Shown: positions 25,708 through 61,413 of the stretch, one piece after another
Layout of the letters: each line of letters begins with the position of its first letter
Numbering within the stretch: the stretch's first letter is position 1
NCBI GenBank assembly: GCA_040901445.1
Contig: JBBDYQ010000002.1
Coordinates: forward strand, 310,001-374,000
DNA: 64,000 nt
Source: Thermoleophilaceae bacterium
Lineage (GTDB): Bacteria; Actinomycetota; Thermoleophilia; Solirubrobacterales; Thermoleophilaceae
Direction: 5' to 3'
Notes under the pieces: model-generated
The model's input: the letters and a program-made list of their open reading frames with translations, nothing else
Databases searched by the model: none
What the model was told of the DNA's origin: nothing
Made by a program: the position numbers and the translations under genes

Positions 25708-25820
25708 CCGAACGAGGGTAACGGCGCGTGACCGGCGCCTCGCACGCCGCCTTCCCGCGCGCTAGCATCCGCGTCCGTTGACCCGTGTTCAGCGGGTCTC
25801 GGGAGGGAGAGGCGCCGGAA

Positions 25821-28526
25821 GTGCTCTGGAACCGATTGGGTACTCCGCACGGGCCGGATCTGCGCGACGGCTCGCGGATCGTCGCGCACGCCGCGGCGAT
25901 GCTCTTCATCGGCGCCGGCGTCCTTCACGTGTCGGCCGCGGCCGACCACGACAACCTGCCGGTGATGATGGCCGGCTTCATCGTGGTCGCCTGCCTCCAG
26001 GTGGGCTACGGGGCGCTCCTGCTGTGGCGCCGCCCCACCGTCACGCTGCTGCTCGGCGGCGTGACGCTGATGGCCACCACCGTGCTCATCTGGCTCGTGT
26101 CGCGCACCGCCGGGCTCCCGCTCCTCCCGGGCGGGCACATGGAGCCGATCGGATTCAAGGACGGCGTCACGGTCCTGTTCGAGCTCGGGAGCATCCCGGC
26201 GCTGCTGGCGCTCTGCAGCCACGACCTGCGCGCGGTCTCGCTGCCCAGCCCCCGGCTGGGGCAGCAGGCGATGGCCGTGCTCGGCGCCGGCATGTTCGCC
26301 CTGTTCACGCCGGCGCTCGTGCTGGGCGGCGGCGAGCACCACTCGGCGGACCAGCACGCGGCGATGGGCGGTCACGCGCACGGCGGAGAGGAGGTGGCCT
26401 CCGCGGACAGCGCACACGGCGAGGAGGGCCACGGGCATCCCGGCGACGACGGCGCCGTGGCCGGCGAGACCGAGGACGGGCACGGGCACGGCGAGGAGAA
26501 GGCGAGCGTGAGCGTGTCGCAGGAGGACGAAGAGGGGCACGACGACGGCGAGGACCACGCGGCGGACGACCACGGCGCGCCGGCGGAGGACGCGCCCGCG
26601 GACGGCGGTGACGACCATGCCGGGGGCGGCCACACCGACGGCGACGAGCGCCGCGCGTCCGAGCCCGGCGCCCCCCACGACCACGGCGGCGGCGAAGCCG
26701 ACCCTCCGCAGGCCGATGCTCCAGAGTCCGGCGCGCCCCACGACCACGGGGGCGAGCAGCCCGCGGGCGGCGAGCCCGGCGCCGCGCCGGAGGCGCCGCA
26801 CGACCACGACGGCGATGAGCCGGGCGCCGGCCACGGCGGAGGCGGGGGCCACTCGACCGGGCCCACCGACCCGCCGATCCCGGCCATGATCACCCAGCGC
26901 GCAGAGGCGCTGGCCCCGAAGCCGGCCGGCACCCGCCAGACCATCAAGCTGCAGTACGGCCCCTTCGTCCTCCCGCCCGGCACCGACGCGAGCCAGTTCG
27001 GCGTAGACCTCACGGCGGTCGAGGGCCTCATCGTGGGCGCCGAACCCAGCCTGCGCTACGCCGATGGCACGGCGATCGCCCACGGCGACGGCGTGCACCT
27101 CCACCACGCGCACCTCTTCCGGCTGGACACCGGCCCCGACGACTCCTCGGACGGCTACAGCGGGCTCGAGTGGATCTTCGGCACCGGCGACGAGCAGACG
27201 GCCGGGAGCTTCGACGCCATCGCCGACGCCGGCGCCGGCGGCGACCGCCTCGGCGTGGCGCTGCACCGCGGCGACCCCATGGCGATGGTCTGGATGCCGA
27301 TGAACATGACCCGCCAGCTCAAGGTTGTGTTCCTCGAGTTCAAGTTCGAGTTCGTGCACGGCACCGCCGAGGAGATCCTCGCCGCCACCGGAGACCGCTA
27401 TCGCGAGCTCACGCCGGTCCTGATCGGCGAGACCTTCAACGTGCCGAAGACGGGCGGCTTCTACGCGTGGCCCCGCGACGCCACCCGGGTGGTGACCGAC
27501 ACCCTCGGCGACAGCGAACTCGACCACGAGACCTTCATGACCCCCGAGCCCACCCAGGGCGGGCGGATCGAGCCCGGGGTCGGGCAGATCTGGACGGCGC
27601 CGACCGACGGCGTGATCGTCGGCGCGGCCGGCCACATGCACGAGGGCGGCTCCGGCATCGTCTTCTCCAACCTGGGCAGCGAGGAGAGCCCCTGCGCCGA
27701 CGACGGCGACGGCTTCGCCGGCACGCGCATCTTCGACAGCCGGGCTTACTACCCGCCGGGCGTCTTCCCCACCCACCTGAAGATGGGCACGACGCAGCCG
27801 GGCTGGCGCGCGCACGTGCGCAAGGGCGACCGCATCGCCACCAACGGCGTGTACGACACGCGCACCTACGCGTGGCCCGACCAGATGAGCGTCGTGGGCT
27901 TCTACGTCGACCAGGGCGAGCCGGTCTCCGACGAGCAGCGCTGCCGCCCCGAGCTGGTGGACGAGCCGGGCGCGGCGCCCGAGGACGTGAGCGCATCGGT
28001 GCCCCACCAGGCGGCCGAGCGCGGCGACGACGGCTCCTCGCTCTTCCACATGGAGCGCCAGCACTGCGTGGCGGCCGACTGCGACGACCCCGACGCGCCG
28101 CCGCTGCAGCGCGGGCCGCGCGCGAGCACGATCACGATCCAGGACTTCACCTTCACGCCCGGGGACCTCATGCCAAGCGGGCTCCTCGGCGGGCTCACCG
28201 GCACCACGCTGCGCGGCGCGCCGGTGGTGGCGCGCGGCCAGCCGCTGCGCTTCGTGAACCTCGACTACGGGCTGCTGGGCGGCACCCGCCACGCGGTCAC
28301 CTCGTGCCACGGCGAGTGCAACGGGCCCGACACGATGAGCTACCCCAACAGCGACGGGCTCTTCTACTCGGGGCCGATCGGCTACGTGCCGCTTGCGGAG
28401 ACCGCCTCGGCGGAGAACCAGGCCACACCCACATGGGAGCTCGACACCTCGGCGCTCGAGCCGGGGTACCACACCTACTACTGCTGGTCGCACCGCTGGA
28501 TGCGCGGCGCGTTCTACGTCGAGTAG
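25821..28526 (+). CDS. Membrane-anchored multidomain copper protein: 5 TM, His/Asp-rich linker, PHM-like region, cupredoxin
   Basis: About 901 residues from GTG 25821, chosen because GGAGGGAGAGG ends 8 nt upstream (a GTG at 25785 is also in frame). Residues about 19-165 hold five hydrophobic helices (e.g. AAMLFIGAGVLHVS, VMMAGFIVVACLQVGYGALL, MAVLGAGMFALFTPALVLGG). Residues about 170-347 form a linker packed with His, Asp and Glu (PHDHGG repeated, HGHG), probably metal-binding. Residues about 355-680 resemble peptidylglycine-monooxygenase-type copper domains: VHLHHAHLF with H426, H428, H429 and H431, then GHMHEGG with H605 and H607, and a candidate Met ligand at 655. The C-terminus is a cupredoxin with a full type-1 set: H824, C888, H891 and M894 (TRHAVTSC and CWSHRWM). 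It would face the cell exterior. The reaction is unknown; copper oxidation chemistry or electron transfer is inferred. Nothing else for copper handling is adjacent. Confidence 0.78.
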   Translation: MLWNRLGTPHGPDLRDGSRIVAHAAAMLFIGAGVLHVSAAADHDNLPVMMAGFIVVACLQVGYGALLLWRRPTVTLLLGGVTLMATTVLIWLVSRTAGLPLLPGGHMEPIGFKDGVTVLFELGSIPALLALCSHDLRAVSLPSPRLGQQAMAVLGAGMFALFTPALVLGGGEHHSADQHAAMGGHAHGGEEVASADSAHGEEGHGHPGDDGAVAGETEDGHGHGEEKASVSVSQEDEEGHDDGEDHAADDHGAPAEDAPADGGDDHAGGGHTDGDERRASEPGAPHDHGGGEADPPQADAPESGAPHDHGGEQPAGGEPGAAPEAPHDHDGDEPGAGHGGGGGHSTGPTDPPIPAMITQRAEALAPKPAGTRQTIKLQYGPFVLPPGTDASQFGVDLTAVEGLIVGAEPSLRYADGTAIAHGDGVHLHHAHLFRLDTGPDDSSDGYSGLEWIFGTGDEQTAGSFDAIADAGAGGDRLGVALHRGDPMAMVWMPMNMTRQLKVVFLEFKFEFVHGTAEEILAATGDRYRELTPVLIGETFNVPKTGGFYAWPRDATRVVTDTLGDSELDHETFMTPEPTQGGRIEPGVGQIWTAPTDGVIVGAAGHMHEGGSGIVFSNLGSEESPCADDGDGFAGTRIFDSRAYYPPGVFPTHLKMGTTQPGWRAHVRKGDRIATNGVYDTRTYAWPDQMSVVGFYVDQGEPVSDEQRCRPELVDEPGAAPEDVSASVPHQAAERGDDGSSLFHMERQHCVAADCDDPDAPPLQRGPRASTITIQDFTFTPGDLMPSGLLGGLTGTTLRGAPVVARGQPLRFVNLDYGLLGGTRHAVTSCHGECNGPDTMSYPNSDGLFYSGPIGYVPLAETASAENQATPTWELDTSALEPGYHTYYCWSHRWMRGAFYVE

Positions 28527-45355: not shown

Positions 45356-48268
45356 TCAAAGCTGGTCGAGGATCCCGCCCTCGAGCACGTCTCCGTCGCA
45401 GAAGCGCTCGTTGAGCGTCTCGCCGCCCAGCTGCACCTCGGTCCCGGGTGGGCAGTTGAGCGTGCCTATCGTGGCCAGCTGACCCGACACGGCGCCGGTC
45501 TTGTTGAAGGCCCACACCAGCCGGTCGGCCAGGAAGCCCTCGGGGAGCAGGAGCCGGGTGAACGAGCTCTCGCCCTTCTGCTCGAGCCTGCCGGTGATCG
45601 GCTGCCCGCCGGTGTCCATCGCCACATAGCCCTGCTTGCAGTCCTGGGTGAGCGAGCCGAACGAGCACGGGTAGTTCTCGGTGTTGCCCTGGAGCCCGTA
45701 CCTGGTGAGGTTGCGGAACTCGACGATCGTGTAGGGATCGCTCCTGTCGAACCAGTCGCCCGTCCGGTGCACGAGATGCGTGGGCGTGTCCGCCTTGAGC
45801 AGGAACGAACCGCCGCCGGCGTGGTCGACCTCGATCGGGAAGCTCGGGTCGCTCGTGCAGGGCGTGGGCGCGCAGCCACGCGTCCGGTAGGGGCCGTCCC
45901 CATCCCGCAGCCGGGCCAGGTTCTCGTCGAAGTGGCCCTCCGAGCAGGTGTTGAGCCGGGCCACCTGGCAGGCGGAGAACTCGGCGGGCATCGGGTCGAG
46001 CGTGGTCTGCTCGTTGATCGTCACCGGCTCGGTGCCGGTTCGCACCCGCTCGGTGAGTGAGAAGCCGGGGCGCCGCTCGCCGTCGATCTCGCTGGTCAGC
46101 CAGCCGTCCACGGCCCGGCTGGCGCTCCAGTCGGTCTTGCTCTCCCCGAAGGTGCTGTTGCCCGAGGTGTCGAGCTCGATGTGCGCCGGCAGGGAGGCGA
46201 GCACGGCGTCGGTGCTCGCGACGGTGTCCCCGCTGCCCTGCTTGTCGATGTCCAGGGCCAGGGCGTGATCCTCCGCGAGCGTGTCGAGCGACGCATGCAT
46301 CGACCCATGGGACGAGTCGCGCGGGAAGCCCGGTCCGCGGCGCTTGGACGTGACGGTGCTGCCCCGCACCGCCAGCTGATCGAACTCGCTGACGCGGGCG
46401 AACGCGACGAAGCGGTCGCTCAGGTCCTGGAGCATCACGCCGTCCAGCGGCAGGCCGTTCTCGGAGGTCGCCGCGAGGCGGTCGTCGGGGCCGCTCGTGA
46501 GCTGCAGCTCGCCCGACCCGAGCCGGCCGCCCGGGGTCGTGATCGAGAGATCCGACTCCTTCGTGGTCCGCGTGATCGTCTCGGTGGGCGGCTCGTAGTC
46601 CTCGTGGCCGGGGCACTGCGGGTTCTCGTCGGCCTCCTCAGGGGGGATGTGCTGGCAAAGCTCCGGCGGGTCGACCTCGTTCACGTCCACCGTCGTGTCC
46701 TCGGTGTTGACGACGCTGAAGCCCACGCCGGTCGGCACCCTCTCCAGCACCAGGTGGATCTCCTTGGCCCGATCGGGGAGGCCGCGGAAGTTGGTGCCGT
46801 GGATCTCGGCGCGCGGCACCTCGCCGTTGGCGGCGTAGTCGAAGTCGAGCGCGTCCTCGTCCTTCTCATAGGTGACGAGGACGTCGCTCGGGATGTCGTC
46901 CACCCCGATCGTCGTGCGCTGGCCCTCGTCGTCGACCAGCAGGATGTCGGCGCGCCCCGCGAGGTCGTCGGCCACGTAGTGCACCCGCCCGGCGGCATCG
47001 CTCGAGGAGTGGTCCAGGGTGATGTCGGCGGGCACGTCCGTGACGATGGCCTCGGTGTGCTTGCCACCCTCGACCACGTCCACCTCCGCGCGGTCCGCTC
47101 CGCCGTCGGCGTCGAGCACGATCCGGCCGCCGTCGGGCACCGTCGTGGTGGAGAGCTCGTCGATGTTCGCGGGCAGGTTGTCGACGTCCGCGAGCAGCCG
47201 GCGTTCGCCGTCGTCGGTGCGCACCACCGCCTTCTCGGCCCGGCCGTTGGCGTGATAGACGATCTTCGTCTGGTCGGGCGCGCCCAGCGCGACGTCCTCG
47301 TCGCCCGGTGCGCTCACATAGGTCAGGTGCGCCTCGCTGGGCAGGTCCTCGACGGTGACGTCGGTCGTCTGCTCGCTGGTCGTCGTGGCCAGCGAAGCGT
47401 CACCGGTCACCGCCGTCGCGACGTAGTCGATCGTCTTGTCCGCCTCACCGTCGCCGTTCACGTCGACGTCCGCGAGCGTGAGGTCCACGCGCGAGGGCAG
47501 CTCGTCGATGACGCCCGTCGTGCGCGGTCCGTCACCGGGCTCGGCAACCTCGAAGCTGAGCTTGGTGCGAGCGTCGCGCGTCACGACCGCGCGCTGGCGC
47601 GTGGCTGTGGTCGTCAGGTCGAGGCCGAGGTTCGAGGGCACGCGCGTCGTGACGCCGTCGCCCTGGAACTCGAGTCGCCGGATCTGGCGGTCGGTTCGCG
47701 TTCCCGCCGGGTTGCCGCCGAACTCCTCGTTCACCAGCGTGAGCCTGCTCGCCGCGCCCGCGATCGCGAGGCGCAGCAGGACCTGCGAGGTCTCGCCGAT
47801 GCCGTCGCGGTCGGAGCGGTCGATGCGGGCGACGAAGGACTGCGGAGCGCTCGACGTGAGCGTGTCGTAGCCGAGGCTGGTGGACCGCGAGCCGTCGCCC
47901 GTGACCACCTCGATGCGCAGGGGCAGCACCGGCAGCGTGCCCAGGAGCCTCTGGATGGTGATCGTCGGTCGCACCGCGTCGAGCCCCTGGACGTTGACCC
48001 GCATCTCGTAGCCGGGGAGCACAGGCAGCAGGCCGAGCGGGAGCGGTGGCAGGTTGCCGTCGACGTCGAGCGCGTACGGCACGTTCGGGACGATCTCCTC
48101 GTGCATGCGCGTCCTCGCCCCCGCCGGCCCCGCCCCGTCCGGGTCATGGGTCGTCACGAAGCTCGCGCACACTCCGCAGAGATGCGCGTCCGCGGGCGCC
48201 GGAGCGCCGGCCAGCCACCCCACGCCGGCGGCGATCGCGAGCGCGACCGTGATCCCCCTGCCTCGCAT
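45356..48268 (-). CDS. Giant secreted repeat protein (about 970 residues)
   Basis: ATG 48268 begins a Sec signal (GITVALAIAAGVGWLAGAPAPADA). The mature protein is almost all beta-strand, with recurring units of roughly 70 residues marked by DLPS or DIPS followed by alternating strands and a G-R-x-x-Y-x-A turn (DIPSDVLVTYEKDEDALDFDY; DVPADITLDHSSSDAAGRVH). At about 585-630 it has LTSGPDDRL, then DLSDRFVAFARVS, which is clearly shared with the other giant protein at 57763-61413. The last 150 residues carry paired Cys (CAPTPCTSD, NYPCSFGSL) and may be a cap domain. It is probably a surface or extracellular fibre. No family is recognised. Confidence 0.72.
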   Translation of the reverse strand: MRGRGITVALAIAAGVGWLAGAPAPADAHLCGVCASFVTTHDPDGAGPAGARTRMHEEIVPNVPYALDVDGNLPPLPLGLLPVLPGYEMRVNVQGLDAVRPTITIQRLLGTLPVLPLRIEVVTGDGSRSTSLGYDTLTSSAPQSFVARIDRSDRDGIGETSQVLLRLAIAGAASRLTLVNEEFGGNPAGTRTDRQIRRLEFQGDGVTTRVPSNLGLDLTTTATRQRAVVTRDARTKLSFEVAEPGDGPRTTGVIDELPSRVDLTLADVDVNGDGEADKTIDYVATAVTGDASLATTTSEQTTDVTVEDLPSEAHLTYVSAPGDEDVALGAPDQTKIVYHANGRAEKAVVRTDDGERRLLADVDNLPANIDELSTTTVPDGGRIVLDADGGADRAEVDVVEGGKHTEAIVTDVPADITLDHSSSDAAGRVHYVADDLAGRADILLVDDEGQRTTIGVDDIPSDVLVTYEKDEDALDFDYAANGEVPRAEIHGTNFRGLPDRAKEIHLVLERVPTGVGFSVVNTEDTTVDVNEVDPPELCQHIPPEEADENPQCPGHEDYEPPTETITRTTKESDLSITTPGGRLGSGELQLTSGPDDRLAATSENGLPLDGVMLQDLSDRFVAFARVSEFDQLAVRGSTVTSKRRGPGFPRDSSHGSMHASLDTLAEDHALALDIDKQGSGDTVASTDAVLASLPAHIELDTSGNSTFGESKTDWSASRAVDGWLTSEIDGERRPGFSLTERVRTGTEPVTINEQTTLDPMPAEFSACQVARLNTCSEGHFDENLARLRDGDGPYRTRGCAPTPCTSDPSFPIEVDHAGGGSFLLKADTPTHLVHRTGDWFDRSDPYTIVEFRNLTRYGLQGNTENYPCSFGSLTQDCKQGYVAMDTGGQPITGRLEQKGESSFTRLLLPEGFLADRLVWAFNKTGAVSGQLATIGTLNCPPGTEVQLGGETLNERFCDGDVLEGGILDQL

Positions 48269-57762: not shown

Positions 57763-60700
57763 ATGCTGTCTGGGCGGGGCAGGGTCGTGGTTATGGTCAT
57801 CACCGTCACCGGCGCGGTCACATCACTGGTACCCGCAAGCGCCGGAGCGGAGCCCGTAGCGGTGACCGTGACCGTGCCTCCCGACGGCCCCACCATCGCG
57901 GTCACGCTCAGATCGCCGCTCGTCGAGTCACTCGTCGGCGGCGACGATCAGGTGCTCGATGCCGCCGAGGACGTGATCTGCGGTCCGTTCACCGAGATCG
58001 CCGCGGCCGTTCCTCCCGCCGGGATCCTCGGCACCGCCGGCTGCGCGATTGGCGCACTGGACTACCAGTACGTCACGCGGCTCAAGACCGGCGGCGGCGA
58101 GATCGTTCGCAAGCACGTGGCGGTGGTGAACGTCCCGACGCTGCTCAACGTCGACGACGATCCGCTTCCCGACGTGATCGGCACCCTGTTCGTCACGAGC
58201 CTGGACCGCTTCGAGCTGCGCATCGACCGCGTCCTCACCGAAGTCGCCCCGCTGCCGCTGCGCGTCGAGGCCATCGTCGACGACCCAACCAACGGCGCGC
58301 TGCCTCGCGAGCGCATCAACGTCGGCTACGACACCCGCGAGAGCATGGCCCCCGTGCTCTGGCGCGCGGTGGCCACCTTGCCCGACGACGGCAGCGCCGG
58401 CCTCACCACGCTCGAGGTCGACCAGGAGGTCGTGGGAGCAGGGGCCACCCTGACCACGCTCGGAGGCCTCTTCAACGGCGACGCCCTGGATCGCCAGGAT
58501 CCGATCGGCGGGCGCCTGCGCTACACGCCGGTGCCGCCCACGTCCGATATCGGCCTGACGCTCGGCGACCACCTCGAGGTGCGTGCGGGCTCGTCGATCC
58601 CGACGCTGGTGAACGCCGTGGCGGAGATCGTCGAGGGTCCCCGCGAGCAGGAGATCAAGGCGGACATCACCGGCCTTCCCCAGAGCCTGCGCGTGCGCTA
58701 CGAGGAGCCGGGCGCCGATCAGCGCACCGTCACCTACGAGGCGGCGACGGGCGTGCCTGCGCTCGACGCCTCCTACACCGACCGCACCGGCGGGACGCTC
58801 ACATCCAAGGCCGTCGCGCACGCCACCGGCTTGCCGACCGGCATGGTCGTGCGCCAGACCGGCGCGAAGTCCGGCGACTTCGTGGCCACCGGCGGCACCC
58901 TGGGCAGCGTCGAGGTCGGCTACGCCAACGGCGAGCCGGTCCTCATGAACGTCGACCATCCCTACGCGCGGGTCGTGCAGGACGGCGTGTTGAGCTCATA
59001 CGCCGGGCGCATCGACGCGCTGCAGAGCGCGTCCGTCGACGCCACCGACGACATCACGGCGGAGTTGCAACTGGGGCTGGATGGCCGCAAGCCGTTCCGC
59101 GCCCTGGTCGAGCAGGCCACCGGCGGCCGCACGATCGACGGGCGGGTGTCCGACCTGCCGCGCCACCTCACCGTGCAGTACGACCCCGACAACGGCCGGG
59201 TGGACTACGACGGCTTCGGCGAGACGATCCAGCAGATCGACGTGACGGCCGAGCAAACGGCCCCGTTCTTCGGGCGGGTGACGAAGATCGACGGGACGAT
59301 CAAGACCCTCCCGCCGCAGGCCACCGTGAACTTCAAGCCCGACGGTGCGGGCATGAAGCTGGAGACCAACCAGCCGATCGGCGAGGCTGAGGTGCTCCTC
59401 ACCAGCGGACCGGACTCGAGCCTCCCGGCCGGGACCTTCGGCGCCAAGGTGGAGGATCTCCCCGACCGCTTCACCGCATTCGGGCGCGTGTCCGGCCTGC
59501 GGCTCGTGGACGTCACGACCACCGCCGCCGGCGCGGTCACGGGGCACGTCAAGCTGGCATCGACGCCGCTGAAGCTCATCTACGAGAAGCCTGGGTCGAG
59601 AGTCGATGCGAGCCTGTCGGCCATCCCCAGCGACGTGACGGTCGCGTTCGATCCCGCGGCGGGCAGGGTGGACTACGACGCCAACGCCGGCATCGACCGC
59701 GTCGACGCCGTGGTTACCTCCGACGCCCCCCTCTTCGGAGACGTCAAGCGGATCCAGGCCCGGATCGACGGCCTCCCGAGCAACGTGAGCGTCGGGTTCA
59801 AGCCCGCGAGCGGCTCGGGCATCGAGGTCGCGGCGACACCGGGCGTGGACATGATCGAGGCGGCGCTCACCGACGGGCGCGATGTGTTCCCGGTGCTCGC
59901 GGAGGGCAAGTCGGGCGCGATCCTGCGCGACGTCCCCGACGAGTTCTCCGCCTTCGTGCGCCTGTTCAACGTGCAGGCGGTCAAGTTCGTCAGCGCGGGC
60001 AACACGCTGACGGCCAACCTCAAGGCCGGACCCGTGGACGGGAACCTCCAAGACATCGACCTGGACGCGACGATCGACGTGCCCGGCGACGCCGTGACCG
60101 GCCCGATGCACATCGCCGGGTTCGTCCAGGACCTGCCGAGCGACCTGACCATCGAGCAGAACGGGTCGGAGATCACCTACGCCGCCAACAGCGTCGTGCC
60201 CAAGGTCACGCTCGACGCCACGGGCCTGCCCGGCGGCACCTCGGGCGGCTCACTGGACGGGGACCTCCACAACGTCAAGGGCACGCTGATCGACGTCCCC
60301 ACCGGGTTCACGATCGTCAACAACTCGCTCAACACGGGCGTGACCGCGAACGGGCCCTTCACGCAGGTCGATGTCGAGGCTTGGGACCACGGGCCGGAGC
60401 TCGGCGCGTTCCCCGACGACGGGCGCAACAAGGTGACGCTCCAGACCCGCGACGGGCGCCTGCACGTCAAGGCGCGCGCGTTCGGGCTGAAGAAGGTGCT
60501 CCTCGGCATGCTCACCTCGACGAAGGTCGAGACGGAGTTCGGCAGCGCGCCCGCGCCGCTCGACGTGGCCGTCGACGGAGGCACCGCGGGCGAGCCGCTG
60601 GACCTCGACGTCGACGTAGAGGAGCTCCCGATCAGCTCGACGTTCGAGTTGGACACGCTGCTGGGGACCCAGATCAAGTGGAACGCGCCCACCGCGGGCA

Positions 60701-61413
60701 CCGACGTCGGGCTGACCCTGTCCGCCAAGGACGTCGGCGCGGTGCTCGACCTGCCCAACCTGCCCCAGACGGTCGACGTCTGCGTTGGCGGCGGGCTGAT
60801 CGGCTGCAACCCGGCGGCGCCGTCGCAATTCGTGTCCGGCGGTGACCAGTGGCTGTTCCCCAACGCCTTCACCGCGGTGACCTCGGCCAGCGACACGATC
60901 ACGATGAACGGCAAGGTCTGCCTGCCGCCGACCGACGACGACGGCGAGGCGCTCGACCCGCCAGGCACCGTCTACGGGACCTGTATCGACGGCACCTCGC
61001 CCAACCGCATCGAGATCACCAACCTGCGCCTGAAGAACCAGCGCCTGGAGTTCGCCTCGGGCGACACCACCAACGAGGACGAGGACGGCGACCCGATCGA
61101 GGACGACCTCCTCAAGCTCTACCTCCAGGGCGACAACGGGGGCATCAAGGTCGACAACCTGTTCGTGCGCAACGACACCTCCGACTCCACCACGATCGTC
61201 AAGGCAGGCCACACGGGAGGGCCGCCGCTGCGCAACAGCGGCGACCACTTCTTCCTGCTGGCCGACATGTCCGGGATCCCGAACACCGAGATCCGCGAGA
61301 ACCAGATCGAATGCGACGACCTCGAGGTCAAGGTCGACCTGCCCGCCCTCGGCCTCACGGACGTGCTGCCGTCCCCGGGCGAGCTCGTGCTCGGGGACGT
61401 CTGCATCGACTGA
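57763..61413 (+). CDS. Giant secreted repeat protein (about 1216 residues), related to the 45-48 kb protein
   Basis: ATG 57763 is chosen (GTG 57736 is also possible). A Sec signal (VVVMVITVTGAVTSLVPASA) is followed by a beta-rich body. Two long tandem repeats of about 155 residues lie at roughly 460-615 and 620-765; each begins with an LPxxxTV strand and a DPxxGRVDYD turn, then P-x-F-G-x-V and a FKPxxGxG turn. The motif LTSGPDSSL, then DLPDRFTAFGRVS (about 541-585) is shared with the protein at 45356-48268. The C-terminal part carries Cys pairs (VDVCVGGGLIGCNP, CLPPTDDD, GTCIDG). No family is known to me; a surface fibre or adhesin is plausible. Confidence 0.72.
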   Translation: MLSGRGRVVVMVITVTGAVTSLVPASAGAEPVAVTVTVPPDGPTIAVTLRSPLVESLVGGDDQVLDAAEDVICGPFTEIAAAVPPAGILGTAGCAIGALDYQYVTRLKTGGGEIVRKHVAVVNVPTLLNVDDDPLPDVIGTLFVTSLDRFELRIDRVLTEVAPLPLRVEAIVDDPTNGALPRERINVGYDTRESMAPVLWRAVATLPDDGSAGLTTLEVDQEVVGAGATLTTLGGLFNGDALDRQDPIGGRLRYTPVPPTSDIGLTLGDHLEVRAGSSIPTLVNAVAEIVEGPREQEIKADITGLPQSLRVRYEEPGADQRTVTYEAATGVPALDASYTDRTGGTLTSKAVAHATGLPTGMVVRQTGAKSGDFVATGGTLGSVEVGYANGEPVLMNVDHPYARVVQDGVLSSYAGRIDALQSASVDATDDITAELQLGLDGRKPFRALVEQATGGRTIDGRVSDLPRHLTVQYDPDNGRVDYDGFGETIQQIDVTAEQTAPFFGRVTKIDGTIKTLPPQATVNFKPDGAGMKLETNQPIGEAEVLLTSGPDSSLPAGTFGAKVEDLPDRFTAFGRVSGLRLVDVTTTAAGAVTGHVKLASTPLKLIYEKPGSRVDASLSAIPSDVTVAFDPAAGRVDYDANAGIDRVDAVVTSDAPLFGDVKRIQARIDGLPSNVSVGFKPASGSGIEVAATPGVDMIEAALTDGRDVFPVLAEGKSGAILRDVPDEFSAFVRLFNVQAVKFVSAGNTLTANLKAGPVDGNLQDIDLDATIDVPGDAVTGPMHIAGFVQDLPSDLTIEQNGSEITYAANSVVPKVTLDATGLPGGTSGGSLDGDLHNVKGTLIDVPTGFTIVNNSLNTGVTANGPFTQVDVEAWDHGPELGAFPDDGRNKVTLQTRDGRLHVKARAFGLKKVLLGMLTSTKVETEFGSAPAPLDVAVDGGTAGEPLDLDVDVEELPISSTFELDTLLGTQIKWNAPTAGTDVGLTLSAKDVGAVLDLPNLPQTVDVCVGGGLIGCNPAAPSQFVSGGDQWLFPNAFTAVTSASDTITMNGKVCLPPTDDDGEALDPPGTVYGTCIDGTSPNRIEITNLRLKNQRLEFASGDTTNEDEDGDPIEDDLLKLYLQGDNGGIKVDNLFVRNDTSDSTTIVKAGHTGGPPLRNSGDHFFLLADMSGIPNTEIRENQIECDDLEVKVDLPALGLTDVLPSPGELVLGDVCID

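What the first reader, a model, noticed from the sequence alone, without database searches (positions are those of the whole stretch)
25821..28526. Membrane protein combining a His/Asp-rich linker, PHM-like copper region and a type-1 cupredoxin
One 901-residue chain seems to hold three possible copper sites: a roughly 175-residue His/Asp/Glu-rich linker, a central region with HLHH plus HMH and a later Met like peptidylglycine monooxygenase, and a cupredoxin with complete ligands H824, C888, H891 and M894. Five membrane helices precede them. I know of no named family with this order. It could be an extracytoplasmic copper oxidase with its own electron-transfer domain.
Basis: partly seen in the sequence, partly recalled or inferred. 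Interest (0 to 1): 0.62.

Follow-up and report, generated by a model that had tools for sequence, protein, structure and literature searches.

The report
Membrane-tethered copper monooxygenase-like protein with cupredoxin
This bacterial gene encodes a membrane-anchored protein that joins a copper-enzyme fold known mainly from animal peptide- and dopamine-hydroxylating enzymes to its own blue-copper electron carrier; it is the odd member of a widespread, unnamed family, and in this copy one of the usual copper-binding histidines is a methionine.

Summary
The 901-residue ORF (25821-28526 +) has five membrane helices, a His/Asp/Glu-rich linker, and a core of a PHM/DBM-type double-jelly-roll region plus a type-1 cupredoxin. 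It matches no Pfam or NCBIfam model. The core nevertheless belongs to a real, uncatalogued family: 71 of 399 genomes of its class have relatives, and named relatives are mainly Solirubrobacterales and Acidimicrobiia. AlphaFold models, for the window core and for a typical member (pLDDT 92.6), give PHM or human dopamine beta-hydroxylase as their top PDB hits (E about 1e-8). In a 68-sequence alignment H428, H429, M492, H605, H607, M689 and the cupredoxin ligands H824, C888, H891, M894 are invariant. The equivalent His-to-Ala change in rat PHM abolishes activity. Typical members are secreted without the membrane part or linker; close relatives carry a cupredoxin plus PQQ propeller instead. The five-helix domain also exists as a stand-alone gene. 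Most likely it is an extracytoplasmic copper redox enzyme fed electrons by its tethered cupredoxin. Substrate is unknown, and catalysis by this copy is uncertain. New variant of a known kind.

The parts
25821..28526 (+). Whole gene, 901 aa, GTG start
   Evidence: SD-like GGGAGGGAGAGG 8 nt upstream
25801..25812 (+). Probable ribosome-binding site
   Evidence: Sequence
25869..26330 (+). Five-helix membrane domain (res 17-170); stand-alone homologues exist
   Evidence: Hydropathy; homologues in 14/232 genomes of the order, most about 160-190 aa and several ending in a short His tail right after TM5
26337..26864 (+). His/Asp/Glu-rich linker (res 173-348), possible metal-loading or buffering tether
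   Evidence: Composition; not seen in other members of the family in a screen for helices and upstream His
26934..27470 (+). PHM-like N-subdomain (res 372-550), CuH-type site
   Evidence: AF2 model; Foldseek PHM/DBH
27096..27107 (+). H426-L-H428-H429 motif (H428/H429 = PHM H107/H108)
   Evidence: H428/H429 68/68; aligned to the HH of bacterial PHM-like proteins
27294..27302 (+). M492-P-M494: M492 invariant; M494 stands where 67/68 sequences have the third CuH His (PHM H172 equivalent, register +/-1)
27588..27911 (+). PHM-like C-subdomain (res 590-697), CuM-type site
   Evidence: AF2 model; profile comparison
27633..27641 (+). H605-M-H607 (PHM H242/H244 equivalents)
   Evidence: 68/68; aligned with HMH of bacterial PHM-like proteins
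27885..27887 (+). M689 (PHM M314 equivalent)
   Evidence: 68/68; sequence context PDQMS vs DEMC
28110..28523 (+). Type-1 cupredoxin domain (res 764-901), amicyanin-like
28290..28292 (+). H824, first type-1 Cu ligand
   Evidence: 68/68
28305..28319 (+). C829/C833, conserved Cys pair next to H824 (possible disulphide)
   Evidence: 67/68 and 68/68
28482..28502 (+). C888-x2-H891-x2-M894, remaining type-1 Cu ligands
   Evidence: 68/68

Best explanation
The gene encodes an extracytoplasmic copper redox enzyme of the PHM/DBM fold, held on the membrane by a five-helix domain. A double-jelly-roll module carries two mononuclear copper sites (CuH-type: H428, H429 and a third ligand, here Met494; CuM-type: H605, H607, M689). 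It uses O2 at CuM to oxidise or hydroxylate an unknown substrate. The C-terminal blue-copper domain (H824, C888, H891, M894) supplies electrons one at a time, in place of the soluble ascorbate used by animal PHM and DBM. The His/acid-rich linker probably binds and buffers Cu near the sites. Shown by tools: domain order, fold, invariant ligands, the Met494 departure, the family and its distribution. Inferred: copper occupancy, electron flow, O2 chemistry, linker role. Unknown: substrate, and whether the Met494 variant still works as a CuH site.
For: Fold: top PDB hits of the window-core model are 26 PHM entries (E 9e-9 to 5e-7, probability 1.0); those of a typical member (pLDDT 92.6, pTM 0.89) are human DBH and then PHM, with amicyanins and cupredoxin-fused copper oxidases lower. 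Profile-profile comparison with Cu2_monoox_C-containing actinobacterial proteins gives E 2.2e-5 to 1.3e-4 with HH on HH and HMH on HMH. PF03712 (0.2) and SURNod19 (1.2e-4) touch the CuM subdomain of L009, both below cut-off. Ligands: 68/68 invariant. Tethered electron-transfer domains recur: window-clade relatives L127/L128 are cupredoxin + PQQ propeller + this core, with CopD and CopC genes after L127; three actinobacterial PHM-like proteins carry a CxxCH (cytochrome c-like) stretch before the PHM-like part (L140-L142); copper nitrite reductases with a tethered cupredoxin or cytochrome c domain are characterised (PMC6400189, PMC13324648). Five-helix homologues sit directly beside COX1/COX2-type genes in L132. 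An odd number of helices with RR/R-rich loops 2 and 4 predicts the core outside (sequence).
Against: CuH third His is Met in this copy; H172A in rat PHM leaves the CuH site empty and the enzyme inactive (PMC6123673). No conserved gene neighbourhood points to a substrate. TM-scores to PHM are modest (0.4-0.6 over the target) and identity is about 10%, so chemistry is not implied by fold alone: PNGase F and viral capsids share the double jelly roll. No coordinates were available to check that the ligands converge.
Confidence: 0.6

Rival explanations
1. A copper-binding, storage or delivery protein without O2 chemistry: the linker, a Met/His-rich former CuH site (M492, M494, M496, H426, H428, H429, H431) and the cupredoxin capture Cu and hand it to membrane enzymes such as haem-copper oxidases.
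For: Third CuH His replaced by Met; strongly His/Asp/Glu-rich linker; five-helix homologues beside COX1/COX2-type genes; the close relative L127 is followed by CopD and CopC.
Against: The CuM set H605/H607/M689 and a complete type-1 site are kept, as in relatives with all PHM ligands. A blue-copper site suits electron transfer better than storage. The window does not show a recognisable Cu operon around this gene.
Confidence: 0.22
2. A degenerate former monooxygenase: membrane fusion and loss of the third CuH His mark a protein whose enzymatic role is lost, the working enzyme being the paralogue elsewhere in the genome (G000:C17, L166).
For: Own genome holds a second member with the motifs HLHH, MVH, GHLH and ENM intact; the window protein has a long branch (1.01) in the tree.
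Against: No frame damage in 901 codons; all the other listed ligands, including the cupredoxin set, are unchanged, which decay would not preserve.
Confidence: 0.13
3. A copper reductase or oxidase acting on a small inorganic or quinone substrate, using the core only as a redox relay to or from the respiratory membrane.
For: Relatives with a PQQ-type propeller and a second cupredoxin in one chain suggest multi-step electron transfer.
Against: No haem or quinone-binding motif was identified in the window protein, and no conserved respiratory neighbour for the core.
Confidence: 0.05

Closest known systems
Peptidylglycine alpha-hydroxylating monooxygenase (PHM) / dopamine beta-monooxygenase (DBM, DBH); Pfam PF01082 + PF03712
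   Same: Double jelly-roll fold; HH dyad, H-x-H and Met of the two copper sites
   Different: About 10% identity; no Pfam match above cut-off; fused cupredoxin; no Arg two residues before the H-x-H pair (Ala603; PHM has Arg240 there, from memory); third CuH His is Met in the window copy
Amicyanin/plastocyanin-type cupredoxins (PF13473, PF00127, TIGR02657)
   Same: Type-1 Cu ligands His, Cys, His, Met with the CxxHxxM loop; profile hit to amicyanin E 6e-4
   Different: Fused to a PHM-like module; extra conserved CxxxC after the first His; below Pfam gathering cut-offs
Redox-partner-fused copper nitrite reductases (e.g. TsNirK, three-domain, PMC6400189; RpNiR with a cytochrome c, PMC13324648)
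   Same: Catalytic copper module with a tethered electron-transfer domain
   Different: Catalytic fold there is two cupredoxin domains, here a PHM-like double jelly roll
SURNod19 (PF07712, plant stress-upregulated nodulin 19)
   Same: Its C-terminal part (profile 277-376) matches the CuM subdomain of a family member at E 1.2e-4
   Different: Below the curated cut-off; match covers only the CuM part; function unknown

Membership tests
Copper type II ascorbate-dependent monooxygenases (PHM/DBM) | PHM-type double jelly-roll fold | tested here: met
   Foldseek of two AF2 models, top hits PHM and human DBH
Copper type II ascorbate-dependent monooxygenases (PHM/DBM) | Score above the Pfam PF01082/PF03712 cut-off | tested here: not met
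   No hit for the window protein; best member 11.6 bits vs 23
Copper type II ascorbate-dependent monooxygenases (PHM/DBM) | CuM site His, His, Met | tested here: met
   H605, H607, M689, 68/68
Copper type II ascorbate-dependent monooxygenases (PHM/DBM) | CuH site of three His (H107, H108, H172 in PHM) | tested here: not met
   H428, H429 present; third is His in 67/68 sequences but Met494 in the window protein
Copper type II ascorbate-dependent monooxygenases (PHM/DBM) | Two sites facing one cleft about 11 A apart | not testable with these tools
Copper type II ascorbate-dependent monooxygenases (PHM/DBM) | Ascorbate- and O2-dependent hydroxylation | not testable with these tools
   Needs protein
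Type-1 cupredoxin | Ligands His, Cys, His, Met | tested here: met
   H824, C888, H891, M894, 68/68
Type-1 cupredoxin | Similarity to known cupredoxins | tested here: met
   Profile vs PDB amicyanin E 6e-4; Cupredoxin_1 in 20/26 and amicyanin model in 24/26 members at E below 1; Foldseek amicyanin probability 1.0; all below Pfam gathering scores
SURNod19 | Score above the Pfam cut-off over the full profile | tested here: not met
   Best 21.4 vs 25 bits, profile 277-376 only

The most novel reading that the evidence does not exclude
A large, undescribed actinobacterial family of uncoupled two-copper monooxygenases in which a covalently attached blue-copper domain replaces ascorbate as the one-electron donor. 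The window member would be a membrane-tethered form with its own copper-loading linker and a natural 2His+Met CuH site.
Probability: 0.35. Interest if true: 0.75.

Novelty: new variant of a known kind. Interest (0 to 1): 0.6.

Why it matters
How electrons reach the two distant coppers in PHM/DBM has been debated for decades. A bacterial family with the donor built into the same chain, and natural variants at the CuH site, would make that directly testable with self-contained proteins. It also points to an unannotated group of copper proteins, often in several copies, in soil and freshwater actinobacteria. It further hints that the plant SURNod19 proteins, whose common-bean transcript is cleaved by the copper-responsive miR398 (PMC3882225), share the PHM fold.

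Tried and rejected
Pfam and NCBIfam scans of the whole protein and its pieces: no useful hit. phmmer of the single sequence against the PDB: nothing significant. Single-sequence scan of genome contigs: nothing; the alignment query then found 79 loci. Conserved neighbourhood of the core gene: none of note among 79 loci plus others; only a few genes recur close by, in at most eight loci. SURNod19 search of the own genome: no match and no control rang, so uninformative. hhalign of the N-subdomain alone: not significant, so the CuH side rests on the full-length alignment, the fold and conservation. Literature searches for PHM-cupredoxin fusions or PHM-like proteins in bacteria found no report. Considered and rejected: chance composition (ligands invariant in 68 sequences) and frame artefact (one open frame, homologous over the core). 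The gene caller's later ATG (25899) was rejected as it would cut the first helix; the GTG at 25821 has a good ribosome-binding site.

Full report
OBSERVATION. The ORF at 25821-28526 (+) is open for 901 codons, with a ribosome-binding-site-like GGGAGGGAGAGG 8 nt upstream of its GTG. Hydropathy gives five helices between residues 20 and 168. Residues 176-350 are 38% His+Asp+Glu.

A REAL BUT UNNAMED FAMILY. Neither the whole protein nor its pieces match Pfam or NCBIfam in any useful way, and single-sequence PDB search finds nothing significant. Six-frame searches find relatives of residues 352-901 in 71 of 399 genomes of the class. An alignment query finds 79 loci in named genomes, mainly Solirubrobacterales and Acidimicrobiia, including Svornostia abyssi, Paraconexibacter antarcticus and Candidatus Solirubrobacter pratensis. 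Several genomes carry more than one copy. Nearly all are about 500-600 aa with a single N-terminal helix, as for secreted proteins.

FOLD. The window core modelled with 68 sequences (pLDDT 72.9, pTM 0.75) has PHM as its first 26 PDB hits (E 9e-9 to 5e-7). A typical member (pLDDT 92.6, pTM 0.89) hits human DBH first, then PHM, then cupredoxin-fused copper oxidases and amicyanin. As an independent sequence test, profile-profile comparison with actinobacterial proteins that match PF03712 (aligned) gives E 2.2e-5 to 1.3e-4, with HH on HH and HMH on HMH. The cupredoxin is found by a profile search of the PDB (amicyanin, E 6e-4), by Cupredoxin_1 in 20/26 members and by the amicyanin model in 24/26.

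LIGANDS. In 68 sequences H428, H429, M492, H605, H607, M689, H824, C833, C888, H891 and M894 are invariant; C829 is 67/68, H426 63/68. Position 494 is His in 67/68 and Met only in the window protein. Its nearest relatives (L151, L152, L003, L004, L005, L153) and the own-genome paralogue (L166) all have His. This His is the only other nearly invariant one in the first jelly roll, so by elimination it is the PHM H172 equivalent; the profile alignment places it within one residue of that His. In rat PHM any CuH His to Ala change inactivates the enzyme, and H172A lacks CuH copper (PMC6123673). Whether Met works is open. Ala603 stands two residues before the H-x-H pair, where PHM has Arg240 (substrate carboxylate, from memory), so peptidylglycine is an unlikely substrate.

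DOMAIN SHUFFLING. A tree puts the window protein in a seven-member clade (support 100/100) with L151/L152 as sisters (100/99; 42-44% identity). L151/L152 are about 600-aa secreted-type proteins. L003/L004 belong to chains of 1132-1183 aa: cupredoxin, PQQ-type propeller, PHM-like, cupredoxin; L127, which holds L003, is followed by CopD and CopC genes. No other carrier of the five-helix domain plus the core was found. The five-helix domain has stand-alone homologues in 14/232 genomes of the order. Several end in GHGH, GGHEH, GVHAH or GDHTHP right after helix 5, which is where the window protein's linker starts. One homologue (L121) also continues into a His-rich stretch and another domain. They occur beside COX1/COX2-type genes (L132) and, in L126, on the same contig about 1.6 kb from a core gene. 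So the window protein looks like a fusion of a five-helix, His-tailed membrane protein to a PHM-cupredoxin core.

MECHANISM. Most likely the core sits outside the membrane (odd helix number; RR and R-rich loops 2 and 4 inside). Cu(I) at CuM binds O2, CuH passes the second electron, and the cupredoxin recharges both. Tethered donors recur: the second cupredoxin and PQQ propeller above, a CxxCH stretch before the PHM-like part in L140-L142, and redox-partner-linked copper nitrite reductases (PMC6400189, PMC13324648). Fold, ligands and domain order are shown; copper content, electron flow and O2 chemistry are inferred; the substrate is unknown and neighbours do not help. The Met494 change keeps a non-catalytic copper-handling role alive as the main rival.

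VERDICT. Observation confirmed, interpretation partly supported: a new variant of a known kind.

Noticed in passing
L166 (G000:C17:97616-99178): Second family member in the window's own genome, with the motifs HLHH, MVH, GHLH, ENM and a complete cupredoxin.
   Followed up: partly
L127:6156-9554 (+) and L128:4847-8398 (-): Chains of 1132-1183 aa joining cupredoxin, PQQ-type propeller, PHM-like core and a second cupredoxin; L127 is followed by CopD and CopC genes.
   Followed up: partly
L009:1498-2877 (-): Family members weakly match plant SURNod19 (PF07712) in the CuM subdomain. Common-bean Nod19 is a miR398 target that follows copper status (PMC3882225), so plant SURNod19 may be a PHM-fold copper protein.
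   Followed up: partly
L140, L141, L142: Actinobacterial PHM-like proteins with a CASCH haem-type motif ahead of the copper module: another case of a possibly fused electron carrier.
   Followed up: no
L132:7538-10497 (-), also L114 and L116: Five-helix stand-alone gene directly next to haem-copper oxidase subunit I and II type genes.
   Followed up: partly
L121:730-1899 (-): Five-helix domain continuing into a His-rich stretch and then an unrelated, unnamed domain.
   Followed up: no
L078:10437-11141 (+) and four other loci: A small secreted-looking gene (YceI-like by eye, not tested) lies within about 40 nt of a core gene in five loci.
   Followed up: no
window 45356-48268 (-) and 57862-61413 (+): Two large proteins (970 and 1183 aa), the first with a signal-peptide-like start, and no Pfam match at E 0.01.
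   Followed up: no
L051, L060, L087, L104 and others: Several genome contigs records titled Bifidobacterium breve are MAG contigs whose family members group with Solirubrobacterales or Acidimicrobiia in the tree, so the titles look wrong.
   Followed up: no
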